Origin: Amycolatopsis viridis
GTDB lineage: Bacteria; Actinomycetota; Actinomycetes; Mycobacteriales; Pseudonocardiaceae
NCBI RefSeq assembly: GCF_011758765.1
Contig: NZ_JAANOU010000001.1
Span: forward strand, 1,054,001 to 1,118,000
Direction of reading: 5' to 3'
Length of the DNA: 64,000 nucleotides
A model generated the notes under the pieces. It was given only the letters and a program-made list of their open reading frames with translations. It was not told the origin of the DNA and ran no database searches. The position numbers and the translations under genes are program-made. Positions 36,693 to 63,937 of this stretch are shown one piece after another (within the stretch, counting starts at the first letter, position 1; each line of letters begins with the position of its first letter).

Positions 36693-36734
36693 GTGTCGGC
36701 TGTTCCGGGCGTCGTGTTGGCTGTTCCGGGACGG
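36693..36734 (-). repeat. 21-bp repeat cluster A, two reverse units
   Basis: Two tandem units beginning GTGTCGGCTG and GTGTTGGCTG with ends TTCCGGGCGTC and TTCCGGGACGG. They are reverse-orientation members of the 21-bp family found at 36818, 41068, 52324 and 63765. Confidence 0.7.
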
Positions 36735-36817
36735 AACGCGGACACGGACCCCCCGGGGGATCGCCGAGCGGCGAACTGCTCGCCAAGGTCGCGCCCGAGC
36801 CGTGCGGCGTCGCCGAC

Positions 36818-36984
36818 CGGCAAACACGCCGCCCGGAGCGGCAAACACGCTGCCCGGAGCGGCAAACACGCTGCCCGGAGCGGCCGACACGCCGCCCCGA
36901 GTGGTGAACACGCCGCCCCGAGTGGTGAACACGCCGCCCGGAGTGGCAGACACGGCGCCCCGAGTGGTGAACACGGCGCCGGAG
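36818..36984 (+). repeat. 21-bp repeat cluster A, eight forward units
   Basis: Eight head-to-tail units with no spacers: starts at 36818, 36839, 36860, 36881, 36902, 36923, 36944 and 36965 (last one 20 bp). Each has CGGCAAACAC or TGGTGAACAC followed by a G/C half ending CCCGGAG or CCCCGAG. Units 2 and 3 are identical; drift increases to the right. The period is a multiple of three, so several frames remain open across the array. Confidence 0.9.
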
Positions 36985-37110
36985 TGGGAGGCGCGGCACA
37001 TCCTGCTGCGCGTCGCCGCCCTCGACCCGCACCTCATCGACCAGCAGCTCGCGGGACTCGCCGAAATTTTGTCGCCCCTGCGACGTACTCTGGAACCCGA
37101 GAACCCCTGA
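36985..37110 (+). pseudogene. 3' remnant of an unidentified gene fused to the repeat array
   Basis: The frame running out of the array reads [20 protein letters not shown] then [22 protein letters not shown] to a TGA, with almost every third base G or C, as in real genes here. In the array the same frame gives 7-residue repeats (ANTLPGA). Upstream of the array coding character fades. It looks like the tail of a small gene whose front was replaced or expanded by repeats. A start at GTG 36679 would make a 143-aa protein, which may still be expressed. Confidence 0.4.
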
Positions 37111-37163
37111 GCCCGCCGACCGGGGCAGGGGTGTGCCCGCGCGTGCCCGAGGAGTTCCGTTCC

Positions 37164-40100
37164 GTGACCGACCCGCAGCTCTCCGGCCTGCTCACCGCCG
37201 TCCTGCCCGATCCCGCCCTGCGCGCGGTGATCGAGCGCGCCGGTGCACCCCAGCTGGAACTGGAGGGTGCCACCGCCACCCGTCAGCTGGTGGTCGCCGC
37301 GCTGGCCGCCGACGCCGGGGCGGGCCGCCCGGTGCTGGCCGTCACCGCCACCGGCCGTGAGGCCGAGGAGCTGACGGCCGCGCTGGCGAGTCTGATCGGC
37401 GAGGACGCGGTGGCCGCCTTCCCGTCCTGGGAGACGCTGCCGCACGAGCGCCTCTCACCGCGGGCGGACACCGTGGGCCGCCGGCTGGACGTGCTGCACC
37501 GCCTGCGCACCGACCACGCGCCGCGCGTGGTGGTGGCCACGGTGCGCAGCCTGATCCAGCCGATGGCGCCGGGCCTGGGCAGTCTCGCGCCGGTGGAGCT
37601 GACGGTCGGCGAGGAGGAGGAGTTCGAGGGCCTGCTGGACCGGCTCGTCGAGCTGGCCTACACCCGCGTCGACATGGTCGAGAAGCGCGGCGAGTTCGCG
37701 GTGCGCGGCGGCATCCTGGACATCTTCCCGCCGACCGCCGACCACCCGTACCGCATCGAGTTCTGGGGCGACGAGGTCAGCGAGGTCCGTGCGTTCGCGG
37801 TGGCGGACCAGCGATCCCTGCCCGGCGAACTGTCCTCCGTGTACGCTCCGCCGTGCCGCGAGCTGCTGCTCACCCCGGACGTGAAGGCCCGCGCCGGCGA
37901 GCTCGCCGAGACCTACGCGGCCGACGCGCAGCTGGCGGAGATGCTGACCAAACTGGCCGGCGGCATCCCGGTCGAGGGCATGGAGGCCCTCATCCCGGTG
38001 TTGTGCGAGGGCGAGCTGGAGCTGCTCACCGACGCGATGCCCGAGGGCACCCACGTCGTGCTGGCCGACCCGGAGAAGATCCGCGCCCGCGCCGCCGACC
38101 TGGTGCGCACCGGGCAGGAGTTCCTCGAGGCGTCCTGGATGTCCGCGGCCGGTGGTGGCCAGGCGCCGATCGACCTGGGCGCCTCGGCCTACCGCAACCT
38201 GGAAGAGGTCGCCAAGCACGCCGGCGAGACCGGCCGGGCGTGGTGGACGCTGTCGCAGCTGACCAGCGAGGACGCCGACGTGCTGCACGTCGGCATCGAC
38301 GCCTCGCCCGGCTACCGCGGCGACCTGGATCGCGCGGTGCGGGACCTGCACGCCCACCTGGCCGCGGGCGGCACCGCGGTGCTGGTGGTGGCCGGGCACG
38401 GCACCGCGACGCGCGCGGTCGAGCAGCTGTCCACGGCCGGGGTGTCGGCCGCGCACGCCGCGGACGGGCTGCGCGAGCAGCTGCGGCCCGGGATCGTCAC
38501 GGTCGCCTGCGGTGGTCTCGCCGAAGGGTTCGTGGCCCCCGAGCTGCGGCTGGTCGTCCTCACCGAGGCCGACCTGACCGGCCGGGGCGCCACCGCCGGG
38601 TCGGCGACCCGCGACCTGGGCGCGAAGATGCCGTCGCGCCGCCGCAACGCCGTCGACCCGCTGGCGCTCAAGCCGGGTGACTACGTGGTGCACGACCAGC
38701 ACGGCATCGGCCGGTTCGTGGAGATGGTGCAGCGCACCGTCGGTGGTGCCACCCGCGAGTACCTGGTGCTGGAGTACGCGTCGTCCAAGCGCGGTCACCC
38801 CGGCGACCGGCTGTACGTGCCGAGCGATCAGCTCGACGAGGTGTCCCGCTACGTCGGCGGCGAGCTGCCGACGTTGAACAAGCTGGGCGGGTCGGACTGG
38901 AAGAACACCAAGGCCAAGGCCCGCAAGGCGGTCAAGGAGATCGCCGCCGAGCTGGTGCAGCTCTACGCCGCGCGCCAGGCGTCGCCGGGTCACCCGTTCG
39001 GCCCGGACACGCCGTGGCAGCGGGAGCTGGAGGACGCGTTCCCGTTCACCGAGACCAACGATCAGCTCGCCGCGATCGACGAGGTCAAGGCGGACATGGA
39101 GCGGGGCGTCCCGATGGACCGCGTGATCTGCGGCGACGTCGGGTACGGCAAGACCGAGATCGCGGTGCGCGCCGCGTTCAAGGCGGTGCAGGACGGCAAG
39201 CAGGTGGCGGTGCTGGTGCCCACCACGCTGCTGGCCCAGCAGCACCTCAACACGTTCAGCCAGCGCATGGCCTCGTTCCCGGTGAAGATCAAGGGCTTGT
39301 CCCGGTTCACCGACAAGACCGAGTCGGACGCGACCCTGGCGGGCCTGGCCGACGGCACGGTGGACATCGTGATCGGCACGCACCGGCTGTTGCAGACCGG
39401 TATCCGCTACAAGGACCTCGGCCTGGTCATCGTCGACGAGGAGCAGCGGTTCGGTGTCGAGCACAAGGAGCACATCAAGGCGCTGCGCACGCACGTCGAC
39501 GTGCTGACCATGTCGGCCACGCCGATCCCGCGGACGTTGGAGATGTCGCTGGCCGGGATCCGGGAGATGTCCACGATCCTGACCCCGCCGGAGGACCGGC
39601 ACCCGATCCTGACCTACGTGGGCGCCTACGACGACAAGCAGGTCGCCGCGGCCATCCGGCGGGAGCTGCTGCGCGACGGCCAGGTGTTCTACGTGCACAA
39701 CCGGGTGTCCTCGATCGAGAAGGCGGCGCGCCGCATCCGTGAGCTGGTGCCCGAGGCGCGGGTGGTCACCGCGCACGGCCAGATGAACGAGGAGAAGCTC
39801 GAGAAGATCATCCAGGGCTTCTGGGAGCGCGAGTACGACGTGCTGGTCTGCACCACGATCGTGGAGACCGGCCTGGACATCTCCAACGCCAACACGTTGA
39901 TCGTCGAGCGCGGTGACCTGCTCGGCCTGGCGCAACTGCACCAGTTGCGCGGCCGGGTCGGGCGCGGGCGGGAGCGTGGCTACGCGTATTTCCTGTACCC
40001 GCCGGAGAGTCCGCTCACCGAGACCGCGCACGACCGGCTGGCGACCATCGCGCAGAACACCGAGCTGGGTGCGGGCATGGCGGTGGCGATGAAGGACCTG

Positions 40101-40733
40101 GAGATCCGCGGCGCCGGCAACATCCTCGGCGCCGAGCAGTCGGGGCACATCGCCGGTGTCGGGTTCGACCTGTACGTGCGGCTGGTCGGTGAGGCGGTGG
40201 ACGTGTTCCGTCGCAGCGCTGGGGACGCGCCCGCCGAGGAGGAGGAGCTCCGCGAGGTACGGGTGGACCTGCCGGTCGACGCGCACATCCCGCACGACTA
40301 CGTGCCGGGCGAGCGGCTGCGCCTGGAGGCGTACCGCAAGATCGCGGCGGCGGTGGACGACGACGAGCTGCGCGCGGTCGAGGAGGAGCTCATCGACCGC
40401 TACGGCCAGCCGCCCGCACCGGTGCAGCGGCTGCTCGCGGTCGCGCGGTTCCGGCACGTGTGCCGCTCGGTGGGTGTCACCGAGGTTTCCGCGCAGGGCA
40501 ACAACATCCGCTTCGCGCCCCTGGAGCTGATGGACTCGCAGATGGTGCGGCTCAAGCGCCTGTACCCGAAGGCCACCTACAAGGCCGCGATGCGGACGGT
40601 GTCGGTGCCGAAGCCGACCGAGGGTCCGGCCGGCGGCCGGATGGGCGCGCCGCAGCTGCGCGATGATGCGCTGCTGGATTGGTGCACCAAGCTCCTGGTC
40701 AACCTGACCAAGAAACCCGCCCCAGTCGGTTAA
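37164..40733 (+). CDS. mfd: transcription-repair coupling factor
   Basis: 1189 residues, usual Mfd length. UvrB-homology region at the N-terminus (about 30-350), RNA-polymerase-interaction (CarD-like) domain at about 495-570 ([20 protein letters not shown]), superfamily 2 translocase motifs [17 protein letters not shown] and [18 protein letters not shown] motif region, and the TRCF C-terminal domain. It removes RNA polymerase stalled at lesions and recruits UvrA. GTG 37164 is the start: GAGGAG lies nine bases before it. The open frame extends upstream through the repeat array, but that part is not Mfd sequence. Confidence 0.96.
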
Positions 40734-40743
40734 GGAGAAGCCC

Positions 40744-41022
40744 GTGGTCAGCCGCAACGACGAGAAGCACCGCTACGAGATCCACGTCGGTGGAAAGCTC
40801 GGCGGGTTCGCCGAGTACCGCGAGCGTGGTGACGACGTGATCTTCACGCACACCGAGGTCGACGACGCGTTTTCCGGGCAGGGCCTGGGTTCGCGCCTGG
40901 CGGCGGGAGCGATCGACGACGCCGTGCAGCGCGGCCGGACGATCGTGCCGCTGTGCCCGTTCATCGGGGCCTACCTGCGCAAGCACCCGGAGCACGACGC
41001 CAGCGTCCGGTGGCCGGACTGA
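40744..41022 (+). CDS. small GNAT-family N-acetyltransferase (NATD1/YjdJ type)
   Basis: 92 residues. The sequence RYEIHVGGKLGGFAEYRERGDDVIFTHTEVDDAFSGQGLGSRLA followed by PLCPFIGAYLRKHPEH matches the short GCN5-related family containing human NATD1 and bacterial YjdJ. The QGLGSRL loop binds acetyl-CoA; the cysteine in LCPF is conserved. Substrate is unknown. AAGGAGAA lies six bases before the GTG; it starts ten bases after mfd, so the two are probably co-transcribed. Confidence 0.9.
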   Translation: MVSRNDEKHRYEIHVGGKLGGFAEYRERGDDVIFTHTEVDDAFSGQGLGSRLAAGAIDDAVQRGRTIVPLCPFIGAYLRKHPEHDASVRWPD

Positions 41023-41067
41023 ACTCCGGAATTCCCGGGCCCGGGTCAGCGGTGATCGCGGAAGCCC

Positions 41068-41171
41068 GTGTTTGCCCCTCCGGGCAGCGTGTCTGCCCCT
41101 CCCGGTGGCCTGTTTGCCCTTCCGGGCAGGGTGTTCGTCCCTCCGGGCAGCGAGTTTGCCGCTGCGGCGGC
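41068..41171 (-). repeat. 21-bp repeat cluster B, five reverse units
   Basis: Units start at 41068, 41089, 41110, 41131 and 41152. Each opens with GTGTTTGCC or a variant and ends near CCGGGCAGC. Read on the minus strand they match cluster A. They lie after the GNAT stop, in the 263-bp gap before the secreted-protein genes. Confidence 0.85.
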
Positions 41172-41285
41172 TGACGATTCCGCCGTCCGTCTGGCATTCT
41201 CCCGGCCGGAGGGGCGGGCGAACACATGGGCGTGCGGTGGCCGGAAGGACGGTGAACTCCCGAACTCCCGGCCACCGAACACGGA

Positions 41286-41687
41286 TCAGCGGTTGTTGAG
41301 GAACTTCTGGTGGGTCAGGTTGTCGCGGCCTTTCCCGGTGCCGAAATAGAGGTGAATCTCTTTTCCTTCCGGAAGGTTGTACTTGCCTCCGTCCGGCTCC
41401 CAGTGGATGGCGCATTGCGAGGTGGTCATGGTGTACACGGGCTTGGTCGCCTTCTCGATGTACACCTCCAAGCGAGCGGAGCGACCATCCTTCTTCACAT
41501 CGCACACCGAGATGTTGTCCTTGTACCTGTTGACGTAGACCTCTGCGCCGCCATCGCGCGAGGTCCAGACGTGGTCCCAGCCACCCGGCGGGCTGGTGGT
41601 GGCCGCGGCCGTGCCGGTGGTGGTCAGTGCTGATGCCGCGGTGACCGCGAGTGTGGCGGCGGTGAGCATGGTCTTGCGGAGCTTCAT
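41286..41687 (-). CDS. small secreted protein, paralogue 1
   Basis: 133 residues. A Sec signal peptide (MKLRKTMLTAATLAVTAASA) is cleaved near residue 28-30. The mature domain of about 100 residues has two cysteines (VCDVKKDG and SQCAIHW), which could form one disulphide, and ends FGTGKGRDNLTHQKFLNNR. I do not recognise the family. It is the last of three tandem minus-strand paralogues. AGGA lies upstream of the ATG. Confidence 0.75.
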   Translation of the reverse strand: MKLRKTMLTAATLAVTAASALTTTGTAAATTSPPGGWDHVWTSRDGGAEVYVNRYKDNISVCDVKKDGRSARLEVYIEKATKPVYTMTTSQCAIHWEPDGGKYNLPEGKEIHLYFGTGKGRDNLTHQKFLNNR

Positions 41688-41751
41688 GGTTCCTCCCCAG
41701 TGGACACGATCGGGGGGAAAGTACCAGACCCGTCAGGCCACCGACGCCGGT

Positions 41752-42147
41752 TCAGCGAGCGTTGAGGAAGCGGCCGACGTGGTGCGGACCGTTACCGGTA
41801 CCGAACTCGACCTCGATCTCCCGGCCTTCGATCAGGTCGTACACGCCCTTGTCCTTCTCGCTGCGCTCGGCGCAGCTCCCCAAGCCGCCCTTGGCCCACA
41901 CGGTGTACTTCCACTGCCCTCCGGAGCTGACCTTCACGTACACCGGTTGACCATCTGCCTTCGTGTCGCACACCTTGATCACGTCCCCCGTTTCCTCGGC
42001 GTACACCGTTGCGTCGCCCCCGGCCCAGACGTGGTCCCAGCCGCCGGCCGGGCTGGTGGTGGCGGTGGCCGTGCCGGTGATGGTCAGTGCCGATGCCGCG
42101 GTGACCGTGAGTGTGGCGGCGGTGAGCATCATCTTGCGGAACTTCAT
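41752..42147 (-). CDS. small secreted protein, paralogue 2
   Basis: 131 residues. Signal peptide MKFRKMMLTAATLTVTAASA, then GGWDHVWAGGDATVYAEETGD; cysteines in VCDTKADG and GGLGSCAERS; end FGTGNGPHHVGRFLNAR. The layout is the same as its neighbours: an Asp-Gly after the first Cys, GGLGSC for the second, and a final basic FLNxR. Mature-part identity to paralogue 1 is low while the signal peptides are nearly the same. Confidence 0.75.
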   Translation of the reverse strand: MKFRKMMLTAATLTVTAASALTITGTATATTSPAGGWDHVWAGGDATVYAEETGDVIKVCDTKADGQPVYVKVSSGGQWKYTVWAKGGLGSCAERSEKDKGVYDLIEGREIEVEFGTGNGPHHVGRFLNAR

Positions 42148-42335
42148 GCTTCCTCCAAGTGGACACGATTGGGCCGAGAGTGCCGGGGTTCGCCACCGGA
42201 CACCGGGTCGGCGGTTGTTGAGTTCCGGGAGTTACGTGGACGTTCGCCGTGGTGGTGTCGTGAACGAGCACGACGCGCCGGCGTGCGGTGGACGGAAGGG
42301 CCGGGAAGTCCGCACCCCGGCCGGCTTGCGCCGGA

Positions 42336-42746
42336 TCAGCGGCTGGTGAAGCTCACCGAGGTGCCGTCTGGCGCGGTGCCCCAGAAGTGCAGGTAGACTC
42401 GCCTCCCTTTGGGGAGGATGTACGGCTTCCCCTGGGATGCGCTGTGCGTGACGCAGCTCCCCAGGCCGCCTTTCACGTCTACGGTGTAGACGGGATTGCG
42501 CGATGATCCCTCGACAAACACGTCCATGTGTGCGGGTTTTCCATTTGCCCTGATGTCGCACAACTTGATCACGTCATTGCGTTCCTGGACGTAGATCTGT
42601 GCGGCGTGGTCCTCCGCGGTGTAGACGTGGTCGTAACTGCCGCCGGGCGGGTCGGTGGTGGCGGTGGCCGTGCCGGTGATGGTCAGTGCCGATGCCGCGG
42701 TGACCGCAAGTGTGGCCGCGGTGAGCATCGTCTTGCGGAGCTTCAT
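42336..42746 (-). CDS. small secreted protein, paralogue 3
   Basis: 136 residues from ATG 42746 with GGAGGG three bases upstream. Signal peptide identical to paralogue 1 in its first 20 residues. The mature part begins GGSYDHVYTAEDHAAQIYVQ, with cysteines in LCDIRANG and GGLGSCVTHS; the end (FWGTAPDGTSVSF) differs from the FLNxR tail of the other two. It is first in the tandem on this strand and is divergent from the SurA-like gene. Confidence 0.75.
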   Translation of the reverse strand: MKLRKTMLTAATLAVTAASALTITGTATATTDPPGGSYDHVYTAEDHAAQIYVQERNDVIKLCDIRANGKPAHMDVFVEGSSRNPVYTVDVKGGLGSCVTHSASQGKPYILPKGRRVYLHFWGTAPDGTSVSFTSR

Positions 42747-42885
42747 GGTCCCTCCAGTGAAAACGATACGGCTGAAGCTAGCGGACCCGGGAACAATCCG
42801 ACAAGAGGATCGTTCAACAACTTCGCGTCCCGCCTCCGCGAGGAGTCCCCTCAGGCGCGCCGGATGTGAGAGGGTTAGGCCTGTG

Positions 42886-47999: not shown

Positions 48000-48036
48000 C
48001 GGACGGCCTCCTTGGACGCATCGGACCGGTCTAGGT

Positions 48037-48055
48037 TTAGGTAAGCCTTGCCTGA
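48037..48055 (-). promoter_or_regulatory. iron box (IdeR/DmdR/DtxR site) before efeU
   Basis: The 19-mer TTAGGTAAGCCTTGCCTGA matches 14 of 19 positions of the known DtxR-family box TTAGGTTAGGCTAACCTAA and is itself a near-palindrome. It predicts iron repression of efeUOB. Confidence 0.8.
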
Positions 48056-48202
48056 AAGTCCAGCCCGACCATCCTCGCTTGATCGGGGTAACCGGTCAAA
48101 TCGGGCGTCACTCCGCGCATTTTCGCAGTTCAGGGCGCGGCAAGGGGCTCCATAACGAAGTGGTGTGATCCGTCCGTCAGGAAGTCTGGATAACCTGTTC
48201 GG

Positions 48203-48874: not shown

Positions 48875-48895
48875 TGGACGGCCCGAGCCGCGCGA

Positions 48896-49300: not shown

Positions 49301-49384
49301 CTTCTGATCGACGTTACCCCCGGCGCGCCCGTTTCGGCAGGGGCGATCAGGGTGGCCGGCGGCGGCATGATGCACTAACCGGTC

Positions 49385-51202: not shown

Positions 51203-51211
51203 CCGGGGTAG

Positions 51212-51754: not shown

Positions 51755-51781
51755 CCGGGTGGCGCTTGCGACAATGGGGCG

Positions 51782-52288
51782 GTGAGCAAGACGGACCTGC
51801 CCTCGTTCGAACCGGTCACCGAGTCCGACCGGCTCATCATCTCCGAGCAGCTCGGCCGTCCCGCGCGTGCGCTGCGGGCGGTCGCGGCGCGCTGTCCGAG
51901 CGGGCACCCGTCCGTCGTGCAGACCAACCCGCGGCTGGAGAACGGCACCCCGTTCCCGACCCTGTACTACCTGACCTGCCCGCGGCTGACTTCGCTGGTC
52001 GGGCGCCTCGAGGCGTCCGGGATCATGAAGGAGATGACCGACCGGCTGGCGGTGGACGAGGAGCTGGCCGCGGCCTACCGCCGTGCGCACGAGTCGTACC
52101 TGGCACAGCGGGACGCCCTCGAGCCGCTCGGACACCAGGTGACCGCGGGCGGCATGCCCGGACGGGTGAAGTGCCTGCACGTGCATCTCGCGCACACCCT
52201 CGCGATGGGACCGGGCGTCAACCCGTTCGGCGACGAAACCCTCGAACTGCTCAAACCCGATTGGCCCAGCGGCGACTGCGCCGCCTGA
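51782..52288 (+). CDS. DUF501-family protein
   Basis: 168 residues, cytoplasmic. Conserved features of the family are RCPSGHPSVVQTNPRLENGTPFPTLYYLTCPRL and GGMPGRVKCLHVHLAHTLAMGPGVNPFG, with four cysteines that may bind a metal. Always found between the FtsB-like gene and ppx in actinobacteria (Rv1025 position). Role is unknown. Confidence 0.9.
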   Translation: MSKTDLPSFEPVTESDRLIISEQLGRPARALRAVAARCPSGHPSVVQTNPRLENGTPFPTLYYLTCPRLTSLVGRLEASGIMKEMTDRLAVDEELAAAYRRAHESYLAQRDALEPLGHQVTAGGMPGRVKCLHVHLAHTLAMGPGVNPFGDETLELLKPDWPSGDCAA

Positions 52289-52323
52289 CGCCACCCGCCC
52301 CACTCACCCACCGCCACCAGGAC

Positions 52324-52470
52324 CAGCAAACACGCCGCCCGGAGCGGCAAACACGCCGGCGGGAGCGGCAAACACGAAGTGGGCCGCGTGTTTGCCGTTC
52401 CGCGCGCTGTGTTTGCCTGTGCGGGCGGTGTGTTGGCTGGCGCGGGCGGCGTGTTGGCTCGTCCGGGACA
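52324..52470. repeat. 21-bp repeat cluster C, forward then reverse
   Basis: Three forward units (52324, 52345, 52366) reading CAGCAAACAC or CGGCAAACAC, then four reverse units (52388, 52409, 52430, 52451) reading GTGTTTGCC or GTGTTGGC. The two arms face each other around a short centre near 52380, so the whole block can pair into a long imperfect hairpin. It fills most of the 316-bp gap between DUF501 and the transglycosylase gene. Confidence 0.85.
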
Positions 52471-52537
52471 CCCACATCGGCTACGCGCTGAACTATCGGC
52501 TAACACTTCCGCCCCAACGCAGCGATACCACCTCTCG

Positions 52538-52553
52538 GTAACACGGGCTTCAC
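52538..52553 (+). promoter_or_regulatory. candidate MtrA-like box before the transglycosylase gene
   Basis: GTAAC and TTCAC half-sites start 11 bases apart, the same spacing as the site before rpfB. It is about 55 bp from the start codon. Tentative: the second half-site deviates from GTNAC. Confidence 0.25.
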
Positions 52554-52604
52554 ACCGCGCGGTTCAGCATCGGATGTGACGCCCGCTCGGGGAGGGAAGT
52601 GGAT

Positions 52605-53801: not shown

Positions 53802-53810
53802 GGTGGGCGC

Positions 53811-54764: not shown

Positions 54765-54821
54765 GCTGCGGGTACGCCGGATCGGGCTTACGCTGGCCGC
54801 GCGGGACGCGGGGAGGCCGGC

Positions 54822-56324: not shown

Positions 56325-56390
56325 GGATTTCGTACCGGTTCGCCCGGTCGTGGCGGTAACTTCCTCTTCACCCTGATGAGGAGGAATTCC

Positions 56391-58112
56391 TTGAGACCTA
56401 CCAGGTTGCTCATCGCGGCTCTCGCGGTCCCGCTGATCGGCGCGGCCGTCGCGGTGCCCAGCGCCGGAGCCCAGCCCACCACACCCACCGGGCCGGCCAC
56501 CGAGTTCACCGTGCTCGCCGCGGGCGGGCAGGACGTCACCGCCGCTGAGCAGGCCGTCCGCACGGCCGGTGGCACCGTGCTGCGCACCAACACCGCGGTC
56601 GGCCTGATCACGGCCGCCGCCCCGGCGGACGGGTTCGTCCAGCGCGTGTCGGCCGATCCCGCCGTGTACGGTGCGGCCAGGGCGATCGCGATCGGCCGGA
56701 CACCGACCGGTAGGGTCGCGCCGAAACGGTCCGACGTGGAGAAGGAGGGCCGTCAGGCGCCGCGGAGCGGCGCCGCCAAGAAGGGCGCGACCGGCACCGA
56801 CCCGTTGGACGACCAGCTCTGGGGCCTGAAGTCGGTGCGGTCGGACCTGGCGCGCACCGTGCAGCCCGGCGACAAGCGCGTGCGGGTCGGCATCATCGAC
56901 ACCGGTGTCGACGGTTCGCACCCCGACATCGCGCCCAACTTCGACCGGGCCGCCTCCCGCAACTTCACCCGGGACATCCCCACCGACCCGACCGGTGCGG
57001 TGGTGGACGGGCCGTGCGAGTACCGCGGTTGCGTCGACCCCGCTGACCACGACGACAACGGGCACGGCACGCACGTCGCCGGCACGATCGCGGCGGCCGC
57101 CGACGGGTTCGGCATCTCCGGCGTGGCGCCGAACGTGTCGATCGTGAACCTGCGCGCGGGCCAGGACGCCGGGTACTTCTTCCTCCAGCCGGTCGTCGAC
57201 GCGCTGACCTACGCCGGCGACGCCGGTGTCGACGTGGTCAACATGTCGTTCTACGTGGACCCGTGGCTCTACAACTGCGCCGCGAACCCGGCCGACTCGC
57301 CGGAGCAGCAGCTGGAGCAGCGCACGGTCACCGAGGCCATGACGCGCGCGATGAACTACGCCTACCGCAAGGGCGTCACTCAGGTCGCGGCGCTCGGCAA
57401 CGAGCACTCCGACCTCGGGGCGCCGCAGCCGGACACGAAGAGCCCGGACTACCCGGCGTCGTCGAACCACCCGCGCACCATCGACAACGCGACCTGCCTG
57501 TCACTGCCGGTCGAGGGCCCGCACACCATCGGGATCTCCGCATTCGGCCCGTCCGGCGCCAAGGCGGACTACTCGAACTACGGGCTCGAGCAGATCTCGG
57601 TGTCCGCACCGGGCGGCTACTTCCGCGACGGCTTCGGCACCGATTGGTATCGCACGAACGAAAACATGATCCTCTCCGCGTACCCGCGCAACGTCGGCGT
57701 CGCGGAGGGCACGATCGACGCGGACGGCGACATCACGCCGGACGGGCAGGCGGCCGGCGTGCAGAAGGCGGTCACCAAGGACGGCCGGGTCGGGTACTAC
57801 CAGTTCCTGCAGGGCACCTCGATGGCCACCCCGCACGCCGCGGGCGTCGCCGCGCTGATCGTGTCCGAGTACGGACGGCCCGGCCGCGGCGGGATCACGA
57901 TGGACCCGGACGCGGTGCAGCGCGTCATCGAGGGCACGGCCGCACGGATCCCCTGCCCGGTGCCGGCCACCGTCGACTACCTCGACGAGGGCCGGGACGC
58001 CTCGTTCACCGCGACCTGCCAGGGCACGCCGTCGTTCAACGGCTTCTACGGGCATGGTGCCGTGGACGCCTACGCGGCGGTGACCCGCGGGGCCGGTTAC
58101 CTGCGCGGCTGA
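56391..58112 (+). CDS. secreted subtilisin-family (S8) serine peptidase
   Basis: About 573 residues from TTG 56391, where AGGAGG sits six bases upstream; ATG 56376 is in frame but lies over that site. Signal peptide AALAVPLIGAAVAVPSAGA, a propeptide of about 100 residues, then the catalytic triad Asp in IIDTGVDGSHPD, His in DNGHGTHVAGT and Ser in GTSMATPHAAG. Extra cysteines (CEYRGCVDP, YNCAAN, TCLSL, CPVPATV, TCQGT) suggest disulphides. Exported protease; specificity is unknown. Confidence 0.93.
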   Translation: MRPTRLLIAALAVPLIGAAVAVPSAGAQPTTPTGPATEFTVLAAGGQDVTAAEQAVRTAGGTVLRTNTAVGLITAAAPADGFVQRVSADPAVYGAARAIAIGRTPTGRVAPKRSDVEKEGRQAPRSGAAKKGATGTDPLDDQLWGLKSVRSDLARTVQPGDKRVRVGIIDTGVDGSHPDIAPNFDRAASRNFTRDIPTDPTGAVVDGPCEYRGCVDPADHDDNGHGTHVAGTIAAAADGFGISGVAPNVSIVNLRAGQDAGYFFLQPVVDALTYAGDAGVDVVNMSFYVDPWLYNCAANPADSPEQQLEQRTVTEAMTRAMNYAYRKGVTQVAALGNEHSDLGAPQPDTKSPDYPASSNHPRTIDNATCLSLPVEGPHTIGISAFGPSGAKADYSNYGLEQISVSAPGGYFRDGFGTDWYRTNENMILSAYPRNVGVAEGTIDADGDITPDGQAAGVQKAVTKDGRVGYYQFLQGTSMATPHAAGVAALIVSEYGRPGRGGITMDPDAVQRVIEGTAARIPCPVPATVDYLDEGRDASFTATCQGTPSFNGFYGHGAVDAYAAVTRGAGYLRG

Positions 58113-58210
58113 GTTCCCGCCCGATCGGGTGACCCGGGGAACCCGGCCCGGCGCCGGCGCGACCCGCACTTCGGACGGCGCACGGCCGGCCAGGTCAACG
58201 GGAGGTAGCT

Positions 58211-58285
58211 GTGAACGCGGAGACGCCGGGCAACTGCAACTGCGGCAACTGCTGTGACTGCGGCGGTGAGTACGGCCGCAACTGA
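58211..58285 (+). CDS. 24-aa Cys-rich peptide
   Basis: GTG start with GGGAGGT four bases upstream, 24 codons, TGA. The sequence holds five cysteines in ten residues (CNCGNCCDC) between an N-terminal NAETPGN and a C-terminal GGEYGRN. No signal peptide. A perfect 15-bp terminator follows 8 bases later, so it is a self-contained gene. Cys spacing (C-x-C-x2-CC-x-C) suits metal thiolate binding or a modified peptide; there is no nearby modification enzyme, only a subtilase upstream and an S10 peptidase convergent downstream. Function cannot be assigned. Confidence 0.6.
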   Translation: MNAETPGNCNCGNCCDCGGEYGRN

Positions 58286-58293
58286 CGCCGGCC

Positions 58294-58327
58294 GGCGGAC
58301 GTGGTGCCAGCGGGCACCACGTCCGCC
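58294..58327. terminator. strong bidirectional terminator
   Basis: GGCGGACGTGGTGCC and GGCACCACGTCCGCC form a perfect 15-bp stem with a 4-base loop. It ends the Cys-rich peptide gene and the convergent S10 peptidase gene. Confidence 0.85.
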
Positions 58328-58372
58328 CTGCCACCCGTCGCTCCGGACGGATCGCAGCGCCGGACCCGGCGC

Positions 58373-59845
58373 CTACCGGTTCGAACTGGAGCGGACGAAC
58401 TCCGCCAGGTCCTTCGACTGCTGGACACGGGACGGTTCGTGCACGTACATCATGTGCCCCGCCTCGTAGTAGGCCGACTCGATGTTGCTCCGCAGGTCGT
58501 CCGGGATCTGCAGGTGCGCCAGCACGTGTTCGGCCGCGTAGTACGGCGTCGCGCCGTCGTAGTAGCCGAGGGCGACGTGCACCTTCAGGTGCGGGTTGGC
58601 GCGCATCGCCGCGCTGAGCGCCTCCACCGCCGACACCGCGCGGCCCTCGAACTCCGAGTACGACCAGTTGCGCACCACGTCCATGGACAGCACCTCGTAC
58701 GGCAGGTCGTTCTGGTAGCCCAGCTCCGAGCGGACGTAGTGGTTGAAGCCGGCCGAGTAGGCGCCGATGATCCGCGACACCGACGCGTCGTCGCTCATCA
58801 GTTCGCGCCCGCCGTCCGGCTCCCACGTGGTGAACCGGCCGTCCATCCGGCCGGTGGTCAGGCCGCGGTCCCGCAACAACTCGGTGAAGAACCGCACGTG
58901 CTCGATGCGCAGGCCGACGCGGTCCACATAGGACTCGTCGAGGCCGGTCAGCGATGCGAGCTTCCGCACCGCGGCCGCCTTTTCCTCCGGCGTGAGCCGT
59001 GCACCCCGCTGCAGCGCCCACGGCAGTTCACGCGCCGCGAACTCCTCGGCCTCGGCCAGCACGTCCGCCAGCTTCCGCTTGCCGTGCTTGCCGTGGTAGT
59101 GCGCGATCGCCGCGTAGGTCGGCACGAACAGCGGGTACGGCTGGTCGTTGCCCTCGGTGAACCGGATCGTGCCCATGTCCAGCACGCTCGAGATCAGCAT
59201 CAGGCCGTTGAGGTAGAACCCGTGCCGCTCCTGCAGGTGACCGGCCAGCGCGGCGGCGCGCAGCGTGCCGTACGACTCGCCGGCCAGGTACTTGGGCGAC
59301 AGCCAGCGGCCGTTGCGGGACGTCCACAGCCGGATGATCTCCGCGACTGCCTCCACGTCCGCCGTGAACCCGTGGAAGTCCTTGGGGCTCTCGCCCTTCT
59401 TCGGCCGCGAGTAGCCGGTGGACACCGGATCGATGAACACCAGGTCGCTGTGCACCAGCAGCGTCTCGGGGTTGTCGACGACCCGGTAGGGCGGCGGCTC
59501 GGGCGAGTCGACGTCACCGGACACCACCCGCCGCGGCCCGAGCACGCCCATGTGCAACCACACGCTGGCCGAGCCCGGCCCGCCGTTGAACGCGAACGTC
59601 ACCGGCCGGGATCCCGGCTCCGCGCCGTCGAGCGTGTAGGAGGTGAGGAACACCTCGGCCTTGGCGGCGTGCCCGTCGAACTTGCCGTCGGTGTGCACCT
59701 CCTTGCGCAGCACGATCCGGCCGGTCTGGGCGGCGTAGGCCAGCTTGCGCCGCCTGACGGTGAGCGTGTGCTGGGTGGTGACGAGGTCGTCGCTCGGTTC
59801 GGGCGCGGCCTCGGTCTTCGTCTCCTCTTCGGGGGTTTCCGGCAT
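58373..59845 (-). CDS. S10-like serine carboxypeptidase, cytoplasmic
   Basis: 490 residues from ATG 59845. The alpha/beta-hydrolase S10 motifs are present: oxyanion NGGPGSAS, nucleophile GESYG, Asp in YYDGATPY and His in AGHMMYVHEP. The acidic N-terminus (MPETPEEETKTEAAPEP) is not a signal peptide, so unlike most S10 enzymes it should be cytoplasmic. It removes C-terminal residues from peptides. Convergent with the Cys-rich peptide gene and divergent from the UDG gene. Confidence 0.88.
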   Translation of the reverse strand: MPETPEEETKTEAAPEPSDDLVTTQHTLTVRRRKLAYAAQTGRIVLRKEVHTDGKFDGHAAKAEVFLTSYTLDGAEPGSRPVTFAFNGGPGSASVWLHMGVLGPRRVVSGDVDSPEPPPYRVVDNPETLLVHSDLVFIDPVSTGYSRPKKGESPKDFHGFTADVEAVAEIIRLWTSRNGRWLSPKYLAGESYGTLRAAALAGHLQERHGFYLNGLMLISSVLDMGTIRFTEGNDQPYPLFVPTYAAIAHYHGKHGKRKLADVLAEAEEFAARELPWALQRGARLTPEEKAAAVRKLASLTGLDESYVDRVGLRIEHVRFFTELLRDRGLTTGRMDGRFTTWEPDGGRELMSDDASVSRIIGAYSAGFNHYVRSELGYQNDLPYEVLSMDVVRNWSYSEFEGRAVSAVEALSAAMRANPHLKVHVALGYYDGATPYYAAEHVLAHLQIPDDLRSNIESAYYEAGHMMYVHEPSRVQQSKDLAEFVRSSSNR

Positions 59846-59876
59846 GGTCGTCAACCTAGCGGAGCACACTGACGGC

Positions 59877-60584
59877 GTGCCCCGACCGAAGCCCCGCGCC
59901 CTGACCGAACTCGACGCCGCGGTCGCCGAGTGCCGCCGATGCCCGCGCCTGGTCGCGTGGCGGGAGGAGGTCGCCGCGACCAAACGCGCCGCGTTCGCGG
60001 ACTGGACCTACTGGGGGCGGCCGGTGCCCGGGTTCGGCCCGGCGGACGCGTCGCTGGCGATCGTGGGGCTGGCGCCGGCCGCGCACGGCGCCAACCGGAC
60101 CGGCCGGATGTTCACCGGCGACCGCTCCGGGGACTTCCTCTACCAGGCCCTCTACGACATCGGGCTGGCGTCGCAGCCGACGTCCACGCACCTCGGCGAC
60201 GGCCTCGAGCTGCGCGGGGTGCGGATCACGGCGCCGGTCAAGTGCGCACCGCCGGCCAACAAGCCGCTGCCGTCGGAGCGGGACAACTGCCGGCCCTGGC
60301 TGGTGCGGGAGTTCGAGCTGTTACTTCCGACACTTCGCGCCGTGGTCGTACTCGGCGCGTTCGGCTGGCAGGCGCTGCTGCCGGTCGTCGCCCAGACCTG
60401 GACGGTGCCCCGACCGGCGCCGAAGTTCGGCCACGGCGCGCACTTCGTCCTGCCGGGGACCCCGGATCTCCACCTTTTTGGGTCATTTCACGTCTCGCAG
60501 CAGAACACTTTCACCGGACGCCTCACCCCGGCGATGCTGCGCGACGTGCTGAGCCGCGCGGCCGCGGTGGCGGGACTCCTCTGA
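59877..60584 (+). CDS. uracil-DNA glycosylase, type 5 (UdgB)
   Basis: 235 residues from GTG 59877. Iron-sulfur ligands include CRRCPRL and PVKCAPP followed by a C further on. The uracil-pocket motifs are GLAPAAHGANRTGRMFTGD and, at the end, GSFHVSQQNTFTG. Family 5 enzymes excise uracil and hypoxanthine and lack the usual Asp/Asn nucleophile. It starts 31 bp from the divergent peptidase gene. Confidence 0.92.
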   Translation: MPRPKPRALTELDAAVAECRRCPRLVAWREEVAATKRAAFADWTYWGRPVPGFGPADASLAIVGLAPAAHGANRTGRMFTGDRSGDFLYQALYDIGLASQPTSTHLGDGLELRGVRITAPVKCAPPANKPLPSERDNCRPWLVREFELLLPTLRAVVVLGAFGWQALLPVVAQTWTVPRPAPKFGHGAHFVLPGTPDLHLFGSFHVSQQNTFTGRLTPAMLRDVLSRAAAVAGLL

Positions 60585-60669
60585 ATCGTTTCGCCCTGGA
60601 CCGGCGACCCCCGTCACAGGTGACGAGGGTCTACGAGCGGCCCCGCAGTGGGGGTGGGAAGATGGGTGC

Positions 60670-61995
60670 ATGGCCGCAGCGAAGTCGGAACCGACTCGGA
60701 TCCTCATTCTGGGTGGCGGGTACGTCGGGCTTTACACCGCGTTGGGACTCCAGAAGAAGCTCCGCGCCAACGAAGCCTCCGTGACGATCGTCGACCCTCA
60801 GCCGCACATGACCTATCAGCCGTTCCTGCCGGAAGCGGCGGCTGGGGCCATCGAACCGCGCCACGTCGTGGTGCCGCTGCGGCGAGTGCTCAAGCGCTGC
60901 CACGTGCTCACGGCGCGGGTGAACAAGATCGAGCACGAGCGCAAGACCGTCACCGTGGAGGCCGCCGACGGCCACATCGAGCAGCTGAACTACGACGTGC
61001 TCGTGGTCGCGCTCGGCGCCGTCGCGCGGCTGCTGCCGATCCCCGGCCTCGCCGAGGAGGGCATCGGCATCAAGACCATCGGTGAGGCCATCTACCTGCG
61101 CAACCACGTGCTGACCAAGCTCGACCAGGCGGCCAGCACCCTCGACCCGGAGCTGCGCAAGCGCCTGCTGACGTTCACCGTCGTCGGTGGCGGCTTCGCG
61201 GGCATCGAGGCGCTCGCCGAGCTCGAGGACATGACCCGGTTCGCGACGCGGTACTACGAGAACATCGCACCGGAGGACATCCGGTGGGTGCTCGTCGAGG
61301 CCGCCGGCCGGATCCTGCCCGAGGTCCGCGAGACGCTCGGCGTGTGGACGGTCGAGCAGCTGGAGAAGCGCGGCATCGAGGTGTACCTGTCGACGGCGGC
61401 GAAGTCGTTCGAGAACGGGCACGTGGTGCTCTCCGACGGCACCGAGTTCGACAGCGACACGATCATCTGGACCGCCGGTGTGAAGGCCAACCCGGTGCTG
61501 GCCAACTCGGACCTGCCGATCGACAAGCGCGGCCGGGTCGAGGCGACGGCCGCCCTGCAGGTCGTGGGCCACCCGGACGTCTGGACCGCCGGGGACAACG
61601 CGGCCGTCCCGGACCTCTCGCGCACCGAGTCCGACCCGACGGCCACCTGCCCGCCCAACGCGCAGCACGCCGTCCGGCAGGCGCGGCACCTGGCGAACAA
61701 CATCATCAAGGTGCTGCGCGGCGGCCAGCCGACGGACTACTTCCACAAGAACCTCGGCGCGGTGGCCGGCCTGGGCCTGCACAAGGGTGTCGCCGACGCG
61801 CTGAACATGAAGATCAAGGGCTTCCCGGCCTGGCTCTTCCACCGCGGCTACCACCTCAAGGCGATGCCCACCTTCAACCGCAAGGTGCGCATCCTGCTGG
61901 ACTGGATGCTGGGCGGTCTGTTCCGCCGCGAGGTCGTGTCGCTGGGGCAGATCAACAACCCGAAGGAAGAGTTCACGCGGGCGTCGAAGTCCTGA
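60670..61995 (+). CDS. ndh: type II NADH dehydrogenase (NDH-2)
   Basis: 441 residues. FAD-binding ILILGGGYVGLYTALGL at the N-terminus, NAD-binding FTVVGGGFAGIEALAELED at about 172, and the quinone-site region AQHAVRQARHLANNI. A C-terminal amphipathic helix anchors it to the membrane. It passes electrons from NADH to menaquinone without pumping protons. The ATG at 60670 follows a weak site. Gene stands alone before the tRNA gene. Confidence 0.94.
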   Translation: MAAAKSEPTRILILGGGYVGLYTALGLQKKLRANEASVTIVDPQPHMTYQPFLPEAAAGAIEPRHVVVPLRRVLKRCHVLTARVNKIEHERKTVTVEAADGHIEQLNYDVLVVALGAVARLLPIPGLAEEGIGIKTIGEAIYLRNHVLTKLDQAASTLDPELRKRLLTFTVVGGGFAGIEALAELEDMTRFATRYYENIAPEDIRWVLVEAAGRILPEVRETLGVWTVEQLEKRGIEVYLSTAAKSFENGHVVLSDGTEFDSDTIIWTAGVKANPVLANSDLPIDKRGRVEATAALQVVGHPDVWTAGDNAAVPDLSRTESDPTATCPPNAQHAVRQARHLANNIIKVLRGGQPTDYFHKNLGAVAGLGLHKGVADALNMKIKGFPAWLFHRGYHLKAMPTFNRKVRILLDWMLGGLFRREVVSLGQINNPKEEFTRASKS

Positions 61996-62037
61996 CCTCC
62001 GCTGGGGACGGAGGCACCGTTCGCTTAGGCTGGCGGT

Positions 62038-62111
62038 GCCCCCGTAGCCCAACCGGCAGAGGCAGTCGACTTAAAATCGATTCAGTGCGGGTTCGAACCC
62101 CGTCGGGGGCA
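62038..62111 (+). tRNA. tRNA-like gene, class I shape, TAA anticodon
   Basis: Acceptor arms GCCCCCG and CGGGGGC pair perfectly; the D-arm (GCCCAACCGGCAGAGGC), anticodon arm and T-arm (GCGGGTTCGAACCCCGT) are all formed. The 7-base anticodon loop CTTAAAA gives TAA, decoding Leu UUA, but the variable region is only five bases (TCAGT). Bacterial tRNA-Leu always has a long variable arm, so it is either a mis-assigned tRNA or an unusual one. No CCA is encoded. Length is 74 bases. Confidence 0.75.
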
Positions 62112-62125
62112 CTGAACCGCAGGTC

Positions 62126-62241
62126 AGTGGCTTGAGGTAGGGATCGTCATGATCATCTGCCCCACTTTTACCCCACTATTCCGCTGACCCTCACAAGATG
62201 TCCTCCAAGGCTGCGGCGTAAGGCGCTGCGCGCCGGGCCCT
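62126..62241 (-). pseudogene. possible integrase C-terminal remnant beside the tRNA
   Basis: On the minus strand two short frames read AAPYAAALEDIL then stop, and GVKVGQMIMTIPTSS then stop, followed at once by the tRNA. Such tails, and the run GTAAAAGTGGGG, resemble the ends of tyrosine integrases that use a tRNA as attachment site. No other part of an integrase is present. Weak: it could be chance. Confidence 0.25.
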
Positions 62242-63336
62242 TCACGTGGTTGCCCGGCGGCGCCGGGAGGAGCGGCGGCGGGGGCGCGGAGGCGGGCGCA
62301 GCCGGTCTTCCGCCCGCACCGGGACCAGGTACGGGCGCTTGCCGTAGTCCCGCTCGACCAGCATGACCATCGGCCAGGCCTCGCCGCCGATCCAGGCTCG
62401 GCGCGGCTCGCCGGCGACGCGGCTGGCCCGGCGGATCGACACCACGCCGCCCAGTTCCATGGTGCTCCGGTCCGGGTAGGTCACGAAGATCCGTCCGACA
62501 TCGTCGACCACGACCGAGGCCGGGTGCCAGCCGGTGCGCCGCACCGCCGCGTACCGCCGGAGCCAGCTCACCGACGCCACCCCGGCGATCAGGACACCGA
62601 TCAGCCCGACCGGGAGCGGCACGCCGCCCAGCCATGTCTCGAAGTTGGTGAGGTTCTCGTCCTCGGGTGTGCGGACCCGCGCGGGATCCGCGGGATCGTA
62701 GATGACGGTGACGGGGTCGCCCACCGCGAGCAGCTTCGGCTCGTCGAGCTTGATCCTCGCCGTCCGGGACGTGTCGCCGAGCGGGTAGCGCACGTAGATC
62801 GACCAGCTGCCCTTGCCCGGTGTGTACGTTCCGACCACCGTGCCGGTGACCCTCGTCCCGTGGTCGAGCCGGTCCTGCGAGTCCCGCGTGAGCTGGCCGA
62901 TCGCCACCCAGCCGATGACCAACGGCACGAGGAAGATCACGGCTATCGCGGCGTTCCGCGCCGCGAACAGCAGGACGCGCCTCGTCTGCAGGCCCATGAT
63001 GGGGTCGGCGGGAGTGGACGGCAGCCACTTCACCGGTTCCACGGCCGGGCGGCCGGCCGCCCAGGCCGCCGCGACTCGCCGCCGCCGGTCTCGTGCCTGC
63101 TGGTGCCAGTAGCGAGCCTGCATCCCGATGACGACAGCGAGCGCGCCGACCAACACGGCGATAGCCGTAAAGATGCCCAGGTCGCGCGACACACCGCCCT
63201 CGACCACCCCGGCGATCGCGCCGGCGACGAACACGCACACCACGGCGGAGGCGAGCGTGCAAGCGGCAAGGAACCAGTTCCTGGTGCGCCGGAATCTTCG
63301 TACGTCGTCGTCCTGGCCGGGGTCGCCTAGATCCAC
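62242..63336 (-). CDS. DUF3592-type membrane protein
   Basis: 364 residues. Four or five hydrophobic segments (AACTLASAVVCVFVAGAIAGV, LGIFTAIAVLVGALAVVIG, AAIAVIFLVPLVIGWVAIG and one near residue 240), with an extracytoplasmic beta domain carrying TGTVVGTYTPGKGSWSIYV and the diagnostic VGDPVTVIYDPADP of DUF3592. The tail is very Arg/Pro-rich (RPPPRPRRRSSRRRR). Function is unknown. GTG start at 63336. Confidence 0.8.
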   Translation of the reverse strand: MDLGDPGQDDDVRRFRRTRNWFLAACTLASAVVCVFVAGAIAGVVEGGVSRDLGIFTAIAVLVGALAVVIGMQARYWHQQARDRRRRVAAAWAAGRPAVEPVKWLPSTPADPIMGLQTRRVLLFAARNAAIAVIFLVPLVIGWVAIGQLTRDSQDRLDHGTRVTGTVVGTYTPGKGSWSIYVRYPLGDTSRTARIKLDEPKLLAVGDPVTVIYDPADPARVRTPEDENLTNFETWLGGVPLPVGLIGVLIAGVASVSWLRRYAAVRRTGWHPASVVVDDVGRIFVTYPDRSTMELGGVVSIRRASRVAGEPRRAWIGGEAWPMVMLVERDYGKRPYLVPVRAEDRLRPPPRPRRRSSRRRRATT

Positions 63337-63764
63337 AACTTCGACGTTACCGCGTTTTCACAACTGAAGTGCCACGTCAGCGGCCGGCGAAAGTCCGCCC
63401 GTACCAGGCCGGACAACTCGTCACCGGTCACCAGACGGTGACTGGATCGGGAAGGGCGAGCCTTCGGCGCCGCCGGGCGCACGATCGGCTGCGGCGACCG
63501 GGAAGCGCGTTCCGGCCGGGACGACGCTGTTCGTCGCGGTGCGGGTGGGCGGTGTGGCCGGGCGCCCGGTCCACCGGAGCGCGGACGGGCACCTGAACTC
63601 GGCCGGGGTCCGCCGGCCTTGCGCGCCTGCCGACTGTTCGTGCACGTCCGGCTGGAGGACTGCACCACGCCCCGGTCACGCGCGGCGAAGCTCACCCAGG
63701 CGCCACGGCGGCGCGAGGACTCGGACCTCAAGTCCTGCGGTTCACCGGCCAACCCACCGCCAGC
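63337..63764. other. intergenic region, no confident gene
   Basis: The 428 bases between the DUF3592 gene and repeat cluster D contain no frame with a convincing start and family match. A plus-strand stretch around 63430-63660 reads coding-like (G/C at third positions, residues VPAGTTLFVAVRVGG) but lacks a clear start; it could be a decayed gene. Confidence 0.35.
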
Positions 63765-63937
63765 AGGAGCAAACACAGCACCCGCAGGAGCAAACACGGC
63801 GCCCGCAGGAGCAAACACGGCGCGACGACCGGCGAACACGCCGGTGCGTCGGCGTGTTCGCCGCTCCCGGCGGCGTGTTGGCCCGTTCGGGCGGCGTGTT
63901 TGCCGGTGCGGGCGGCGTGTTGGCCGCTCGGGCGATG
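63765..63937. repeat. 21-bp repeat cluster D, forward then reverse
   Basis: Four forward units (63765, 63786, 63807, 63828) reading AGGAGCAAACAC or ACCGGCGAACAC, then four reverse units (63854, 63875, 63896, 63917) reading GTGTTCGCC, GTGTTGGCC, GTGTTTGCC and GTGTTGGCC. Like cluster C the two halves face each other and could form a long hairpin. Confidence 0.85.

What the first reader, a model, noticed from the sequence alone, without database searches (positions are those of the whole stretch)
36693..63937. A 21-bp repeat family occupies four intergenic clusters in this window
Clusters at 36693-36984, 41068-41171, 52324-52470 and 63765-63937 share a unit with core GGCAAACAC and a G/C-rich half, in tandem without spacers and in both orientations. 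The period is exactly two turns of B-DNA, so equivalent positions lie on one face of the helix, which suits cooperative binding of a protein. No known mobile element explains them. There are about 30 units in 27 kb.
Basis: seen in the sequence. Interest (0 to 1): 0.75.

Follow-up and report, generated by a model that had tools for sequence, protein, structure and literature searches.

The report
Phased 21-bp repeats at gene ends
A soil bacterium related to antibiotic producers carries dozens of clusters of a short repeat spaced 21 bases apart, mostly just behind the ends of genes and where an ordinary transcription stop signal is usually missing, which suggests a so far undescribed kind of gene-end marker.

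Summary
Confirmed, and genome-wide. The window lies in a 5.68-Mb genome close to Amycolatopsis tucumanensis. The 21-mer occurs 266 times at up to 3 mismatches, against 2 for a reversed control.

The unit is a 10-bp core, GGC[ACG]AACACG, plus a variable 11-bp spacer of nearly fixed length: 422 of 442 same-strand core steps are 21, 42 or 63 bp. Arrays sit behind stop codons: of 56, 32 lie between convergent genes and 1 between divergent genes; 20 of 20 co-directional ones are nearer the upstream stop. Facing (> <) junctions outnumber (< >) 39 to 6. Ordinary terminator hairpins stand beside 2 of 32 convergent arrays, against 56 of 95 array-free convergent gaps.

Arrays stay at the same junctions in a sister species with different copy number. 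Core pairs occur in 23 of 297 family genomes and 0 of 244 from other families of the order.

Best reading: phased, oriented binding-site arrays that stop or insulate transcription at gene ends. No binding protein or transcript data were available. REP/BIME elements are the nearest known kind, but three defining features are not met.

The parts
36681..36722 (-). cluster 1a: two minus-oriented 21-bp units
36819..36986 (+). cluster 1b: eight plus-oriented units, in a 539-bp gap between two plus genes, fused on the right to the C-terminal remnant of a gene intact in A. tucumanensis; no array at this site in the sister genome G092
36067..36624 (+). gene upstream of cluster 1 (methyltransferase, Pfam PF13649)
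37164..40733 (+). mfd (TRCF, Pfam PF03461/PF02559), gene downstream of cluster 1
41067..41160 (-). cluster 2: five minus-oriented cores between convergent genes; about two degenerate units at the same place in G092
40744..41022 (+). GNAT-type acetyltransferase gene (PF14542) ending about 45 bp before cluster 2
41286..41687 (-). called gene of 133 aa with no Pfam match, ending on the other side of cluster 2
52325..52459 (.). cluster 3: three plus cores then four minus cores, central hairpin at 52367-52396; 36 bp behind a stop codon; shared with G092 (5 cores there)
51782..52288 (+). DUF501 gene (PF04417) ending before cluster 3
63747..63925 (.). cluster 4: five plus cores then four minus cores, central hairpin GGCGAACACGCCG-loop-CGGCGTGTTCGCC at 63831-63862; about 110 bp from the stop of a called minus gene beyond the window (window position 64037; low-scoring call, no Pfam match) and 503 bp from the start of the minus gene on its left; shared with G092

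Best explanation
The clusters are gene-end boundary elements of a repeat family that, among the genomes sampled, is confined to this bacterial family. Each array is a row of oriented 10-bp sites, GGC[ACG]AACACG, two helical turns apart, placed behind stop codons. The most likely action is to stop or insulate transcription at the gene end in place of an ordinary terminator hairpin: a protein binds the sites side by side on one face of the DNA and blocks RNA polymerase arriving from the stop-codon side, and a facing (> <) array blocks from both sides between convergent genes. Shown here: family, phase, orientation, gene-end placement, shortage of ordinary hairpins, persistence at orthologous junctions with changing copy number. 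Inferred: that transcription stops there, and that a bound protein rather than RNA pairing does it.
For: Placement: in an even sample of 80 x 20 kb plus the window, 17 intergenic arrays fall 12 convergent (two of them in one junction), 5 co-directional, 0 divergent, although divergent gaps hold 31% of intergenic bases (p 1e-6 for the convergent excess, 0.003 for the divergent absence). Over all 56 arrays of 3 or more units: 32 convergent, 20 co-directional, 1 divergent, 1 in a gene, 2 at stretch edges; 20 of 20 co-directional arrays lie nearer the upstream stop than the next start. Sister G092: 15 of 15 co-directional arrays by the printed distances, 0 of 19 divergent. Terminator shortage: a strong ordinary hairpin (my score of 24 or more) outside the array in 2 of 32 array-bearing convergent junctions against 56 of 95 array-free ones (p 7e-8); with a flank of at least 40 bp, 2 of 17 (p 4e-4). 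Orientation: the unit nearest a stop is in sense in 66 of 84 cases. Phase: 422 of 442 core steps at multiples of 21; 12 period shifts against 1698 spacer substitutions in arrays, 15 indels against 129 substitutions in 19 array-free orthologous gaps; 31 of 41 facing core pairs at 19-22 bp. For binding rather than RNA pairing: other genera have arrays with the same core and step but other spacers (these searches required the core); complementarity at the centre is not above that between random partners (p 0.10); pairing within the unit is no better than shuffled; convergent arrays in one orientation only have no ordinary terminator either, 0 of 8.
Against: No protein was identified and no transcript data were available. 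Shortage of hairpins may mean that arrays settled where termination does not matter. In the longest flank class (80-400 bp) the deficit is not significant (2 of 9 against 22 of 43, p 0.15), and one of the 8 one-orientation arrays has a flank hairpin of 23, just below my cut. Opposite units below the caller's threshold may exist in those 8. 18 of 84 stop-nearest units are antisense, and some arrays behind a gene run wholly antisense. The distribution is patchy: 10 of 19 genus genomes have no exact core pair, so the function cannot be essential to the genus. The two facing arrays folded here fold very well as RNA (z -5.7 and -5.2), as the hairpin rival predicts. Tandem-array turnover could itself remove off-phase units. 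The core's conservation is partly built in, because units were picked by similarity to it. In G009 and G081, 2 of 5 co-directional arrays lie nearer the next start. Gene calls come from my own simple caller, not from an annotation.
Confidence: 0.4

Rival explanations
1. RNA hairpin terminators: facing units form a long stem-loop in the transcript (10-13 bp central hairpin, then imperfect stems) that ends transcription or protects 3' ends; tandem copies are by-products of slippage.
For: 39 facing (> <) against 6 (< >) junctions; the innermost pair has 9-12 nt between two cores in 32 of 39, and the stem extends into the spacer in 25 of 39 against about 13 for shuffled spacers; clusters 3 and 4 fold with z -5.7 and -5.2; convergent position; shortage of ordinary hairpins.
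Against: No compensatory pairing beyond chance at the centre (p 0.10) and none within units; the stem extension may only reflect the unit consensus; 8 of 32 convergent arrays run in one orientation and also lack ordinary hairpins; (< >) inversions would fold too yet are rare; a hairpin gives no reason for a fixed 21-bp spacing of distant units.
Confidence: 0.25
2. Selfish or neutral repeats: small elements that spread by an unknown route and amplify by slippage, tolerated mainly at gene 3' ends because promoters and genes exclude them; no host function.
For: Patchy occurrence; in G156 11 of 20 arrays have the identical layout of four plus and three minus units, some with near-identical arms and flanks at different places, and 14 of 33 ends carry a shared CCGGCAAC-type motif against 0 of 90 in the own genome; cluster 1 lies in eroded gene remains and is absent from G092; an array sits in frame inside a gene linker; copy number differs in 13 of 13 comparable loci.
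Against: Constraint on phase but not on spacer sequence; sense orientation bias; shortage of ordinary terminators beside arrays; same core and step in other genera.
Confidence: 0.25
3. Chromosome-organising sites: binding arrays for a nucleoid or segregation protein parked in harmless convergent gaps.
For: Phased oriented arrays spread along the chromosome; majority orientation follows the replication direction in 12 of 16 untied sampled arrays, with the terminus placed at about 3.0 Mb from GC skew.
Against: The strand bias is weak (p 0.08); no clustering near origin or terminus was seen by eye, which is no formal test and rests partly on a truncated list; it does not explain sense orientation to the adjacent gene or the terminator shortage.
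Confidence: 0.1

Closest known systems
REP / BIME / REPIN elements
   Same: Short repeats in high copy, mainly between convergent and unidirectional genes and downstream of coding regions, often close together in opposite orientation, proposed to act in termination or protein binding (passages of PMC3733652; passages of PMC2817692; abstract start of PMC3116915 in the listing).
   Different: The unit shows no stem-loop of its own, the consensus holds neither GTAG nor CGTC, it repeats at a fixed 21 bp in arrays of up to 30 cores, and the own genome has no Y1_Tnp (RAYT) match.
Miniature inverted-repeat elements (MITEs; defining features recalled)
   Same: In relative G156 whole palindromic elements recur at different places, some with shared outer motifs in inverted order.
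   Different: In the own genome no such outer motif (0 of 90 ends); clean target duplications were not seen in three attempted empty-site comparisons.
Iteron arrays and Pol I terminator (Sal-box/TTF-I) arrays (recalled, from no call)
   Same: Oriented protein sites in tandem about two helical turns apart (iterons); oriented terminator boxes behind genes that stop polymerase through a bound protein (Sal boxes).
   Different: Iterons mark replication origins of single replicons; Sal boxes are eukaryotic. No binder is known here.
VNTR / MIRU-type minisatellites (recalled label)
   Same: Tandem, intergenic, copy number differs between sister genomes at the same junction.
   Different: Dispersed with the same core in several genera, facing arrangement, phase constraint, gene-end placement.

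Membership tests
REP/BIME | unit is itself a 20-40 bp palindrome (stem-loop) | tested here: not met
   the one candidate stem within the unit: none of its five pairs is paired notably more often than with shuffled partners in 491 units; all five paired in 21%
REP/BIME | GTAG or CGTC tag at one end | tested here: not met
   the consensus GGCVAACACG-CYGCCSGGAGC holds no such tag; tag definition from PMC3733652, which says it covers most, not all, REPs
REP/BIME | REP-associated tyrosine transposase (Y1_Tnp) in the genome | tested here: not met
   1 of 19 genus genomes has a match (G160, partial, no core pairs); own genome none
REP/BIME | located between convergent or unidirectional genes, downstream of coding regions | tested here: met
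MITE | terminal inverted repeats and target-site duplication | tested here: inconclusive
   own: no such shared end motif (0 of 90). G156: inward CCGGCAAC-type motif at 14 of 33 ends, both ends in few; three empty-site alignments were not clean
CRISPR array | repeats separated by unique spacers of similar length | tested here: not met
   units are head to tail; the variable 11 bp resemble each other within arrays; two orientations
DNA uptake sequence | very many single copies, many of them inside genes, far above expectation | tested here: not met
   of 180 exact cores in the sample 122 lie in arrays; 58 lie outside (49 in called genes) against 18 in the reversed control, which does not keep codon usage
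Rfam structured RNA | match to a curated family | tested here: not met
   window 36000-64000: only a tRNA at 62038-62111
Intrinsic terminator | stable hairpin at the transcript end | tested here: inconclusive
   facing arrays have a central hairpin, one-orientation arrays do not by the caller used; transcript ends not available
Protein roadblock terminator | a specific binder that stops RNA polymerase | not testable with these tools
   needs pull-down and in vitro transcription

The most novel reading that the evidence does not exclude
Bacterial protein-roadblock terminators: a family-specific DNA-binding protein polymerises on helically phased, oriented 21-bp sites behind genes and stops RNA polymerase from the stop-codon side, replacing intrinsic terminators, with copy number tuning read-through. 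This would be a bacterial counterpart of oriented Pol I terminator-box arrays.
Probability: 0.2. Interest if true: 0.85.

Novelty: new variant of a known kind. Interest (0 to 1): 0.55.

Why it matters
How high-GC actinobacteria end transcripts without T-tracts is not well settled (background knowledge, no call). A repeat family that stands where the ordinary hairpin is mostly missing gives dozens of natural test sites per genome, with a sister species that differs in copy number at the same junctions. If a protein binds the arrays it would be a new class of terminator or insulator, useful in strain engineering of antibiotic producers. If not, it is still a type of gene-end repeat for which my searches found no description, with an unexplained phase constraint and spread.

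Tried and rejected
Strand bias by replication arm seen in the list: an artefact of a truncated list. Known minus matches such as window 63874 are missing from it, so it was not used; the even sample gives only a weak bias (12 to 4, 2 ties, p 0.08).

Deletion-scar idea: cluster 1 sits on a deletion relative to A. tucumanensis, and A. acidicola has an array where the acetyltransferase gene is missing, but G092 has an eroded gene at the cluster 1 site without an array. Gene loss alone therefore does not make arrays; kept as a partial observation.

MITE idea from G156 flanks: not supported in the own genome; the empty-site alignments were poor. A count of the flank motif was close to its reversed control (66 to 41 in G156, 406 to 319 own, 96 to 74 G092) and is not used.

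Unit-internal hairpin: rejected. Compensatory changes at the centre: not significant. RAYT: no match in the own genome. No match of cluster 4 in plasmids, of cluster 1b in phages, or of window 36000-64000 in Rfam beyond a tRNA.

Single matches inside genes were set aside and not studied further. Of 61 candidate places, five with fewer than 3 units were left out of the 56 arrays.

Literature: the lists shown by searches hold no title or abstract start that describes this repeat. Most of those lists were capped: for example, on core strings, found 128 papers and listed 15. Most subscription-journal papers are not in the library. Of two papers I read passages; of the others only listings.

Limits: about 2.0 Mb of the 5.68 Mb genome was read. 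The 37 extra loci were picked mostly from the truncated one search list, so rates use the even sample only. The G092 comparison (13 of 13 shared, own copy larger) is biased, because most of the own loci in hand were chosen for strong own matches; 6 of 19 G092 arrays could not be assessed. The G156 stretches were also chosen around listed matches.

Full report
WHAT IS THERE. The four clusters are real. The unit is GGCVAACACG followed by 11 bp of looser consensus CYGCCSGGAGC. The window holds 31 cores: 2 + 8, 5, 7 and 9. Cluster 1 is two separate pieces 96 bp apart.

ORGANISM. Among named records the mfd protein beside cluster 1 is closest to that of Amycolatopsis tucumanensis (95% in the best segment; that tool may leave out the genome's own record). 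The genome is one contig of 5,684,261 bases. I take G161 and G150 for A. tucumanensis and A. acidicola because their contig lengths agree. The sister genome G092 is 99% identical in mfd.

SURVEY. I read 80 evenly spaced stretches of 20 kb and the window, plus 37 stretches of 9 kb, most of them around listed matches. Genes were called with a simple codon-usage caller written here. One search lists 61 candidate places, of which 56 have three or more units: 32 between convergent genes, 12 and 8 between co-directional plus and minus genes, 1 divergent, 1 inside a gene, 2 at stretch edges. A second caller that ignores the spacer finds 20 arrays in the even sample and none in the reversed sequence: 12 convergent (two in one junction), 5 co-directional, 0 divergent, 1 coding, 2 edge.

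GENE ENDS. 20 of 20 co-directional arrays lie nearer the upstream stop than the downstream start. The sister genome shows the same, 15 of 15 by the distances printed. In G156, 13 of 20 arrays are convergent, 5 co-directional (4 nearer the stop by the printed distances), 1 divergent, 1 at an edge. In two other genera (G009, G081) the 14 loci fetched, of 65 matches, hold 11 distinct arrays of two or more units: 5 convergent, 5 co-directional (3 nearer the stop) and 1 inside a called gene.

PHASE. Cores found without regard to spacing lie 21 bp apart in 393 of 442 same-strand steps up to 64 bp, and at 42 or 63 in 29 more. Spacers differ by 1698 substitutions over steps of 21 (513 such steps), but only 12 steps of 17-25 bp deviate from 21; 19 array-free orthologous gaps between own and G092 (2216 aligned columns) show 129 substitutions and 15 indels (p 9e-11). 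The array caller favours spacings near 21; the spacing count does not and agrees. Facing core pairs lie at 19-22 bp in 31 of 41 cases, with 5 at 12-13, 2 at 30 and 33, and 3 further apart. In A. acidicola (G150), G153 and G159, pairs with any gap of 3-30 bp number 127, 14 and 48, and pairs with the 11-bp gap 118, 13 and 47; in G009 55 and 51, in G081 14 and 14, in G125 17 and 13. Two other genomes of genus g17 behave differently: G086 107 against 7, G055 45 against 7.

STRUCTURE. Inversions are 39 (> <) against 6 (< >) (p 5e-7). The innermost pair is core, 9-12 nt, core in 32 of 39. Clusters 3 and 4 fold much better than shuffled sequence (z -5.7, -5.2). Complementarity at the centre is not above that between random partners (p 0.10), and pairing within the unit is no better than shuffled. 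Sequence and spacing are therefore the better candidates for what is kept, with the caution that units were picked by similarity to the core.

TERMINATORS. Array-free convergent gaps of 40-400 bp carry a strong hairpin (my score of 24 or more) in 56 of 95. Array-bearing ones carry one outside the array in 2 of 32 (p 7e-8), and in 2 of 17 with a flank of at least 40 bp (p 4e-4). By flank length: 40-80 bp, 0 of 8 against 34 of 52 (p 6e-4); 80-400 bp, 2 of 9 against 22 of 43 (p 0.15, not significant). The eight convergent arrays that run in one orientation only also have none outside, one of them at 23, just under the cut. The unit nearest a stop codon is in sense in 66 of 84.

EVOLUTION. Of 19 arrays in the G092 stretches, 13 have their own-genome counterpart in hand, and all 13 have an array at the same junction, with more cores in the own genome; the choice of loci favours this. 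Clusters 3 and 4 are shared, cluster 2 is reduced to about two units in G092, and cluster 1 is absent there. Cluster 1 joins the start of a gene (window 36632-36690 matches L148:7511-7569 at 90%) to the end of another gene, so it marks a deletion relative to A. tucumanensis, but G092 has an eroded gene there without an array. For three G156 arrays compared with own DNA, the own genome has none at the matching place; two others are shared. One array lies in frame in the linker of a magnesium-chelatase-like gene (my reading of the sequence, no family search): 5 units here, 4 in G092, none in G113. In G156, 11 of 20 arrays have exactly four plus and three minus units, and some share arms and flanks.

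DISTRIBUTION. Exact core pairs at 21 bp occur in 23 of 297 family genomes: own 276, G156 234, G150 118, G009 51, G159 47, G092 45, G146 17, G081 14, G153 and G125 13 each, G155 8, G055 and G086 7 each, G161 4, G041 2, eight others 1 (the reversed control matched once, in G160). 10 of 19 genus genomes have none. In a sample of the order, 0 of 244 genomes from 15 other families have any (the reversed control matched once, in G478). These searches ask for the exact core, so diverged forms would be missed.

MECHANISM AND NOVELTY. The facts fit an oriented, phased binding array that stops or insulates transcription at gene ends; the steps from placement to action and from phase to protein are inference. 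REP/BIME elements share the place and the pairing (passages of PMC3733652 and PMC2817692), but the palindromic unit, the terminal tag and the transposase are not met, so it works like them in part and is not filed as one. The literature listings named under Tried and rejected hold no account of this repeat.

Noticed in passing
G000:C1:1509653-1509757 (L051:18653-18757): Five plus units lie in frame in the linker of a 650-aa magnesium-chelatase-like gene as a G-E-H-G-x-G-x repeat; 4 units in G092, none in G113.
   Followed up: yes
G156 arrays, L268-L287: 11 of 20 arrays have exactly four plus and three minus units, and 14 of 33 inward ends carry a CCGGCAAC-type motif, in places at both ends in inverted order, as in a copied palindromic element.
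   Followed up: partly
genomes G086, G055 (genus g17): Core pairs GGCVAACACG occur mostly at spacings other than 21 (107 and 45 pairs with gaps of 3-30 bp, only 7 each at the 11-bp gap).
   Followed up: no
L206:13610-13930 (A. acidicola): An array of about 14 cores directly behind mfd, where A. tucumanensis has an acetyltransferase gene.
   Followed up: partly
G000:C1, first and last about 7 kb: The contig ends seem to overlap: the same hairpin in the same 147-bp gap appears at 1535 and 5678821, and other matches recur at the same offset, as in an untrimmed circular assembly.
   Followed up: no
G000:C1, about 3.0 Mb: GC skew changes sign, probably the replication terminus.
   Followed up: no
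window 62038-62111: A tRNA gene (Rfam RF00005), the only Rfam match in 36000-64000.
   Followed up: no
G000:C1:734792: The only own array between divergently called genes (641 and 134 bp from the two starts); the 641-bp gap may hide an uncalled gene.
   Followed up: no
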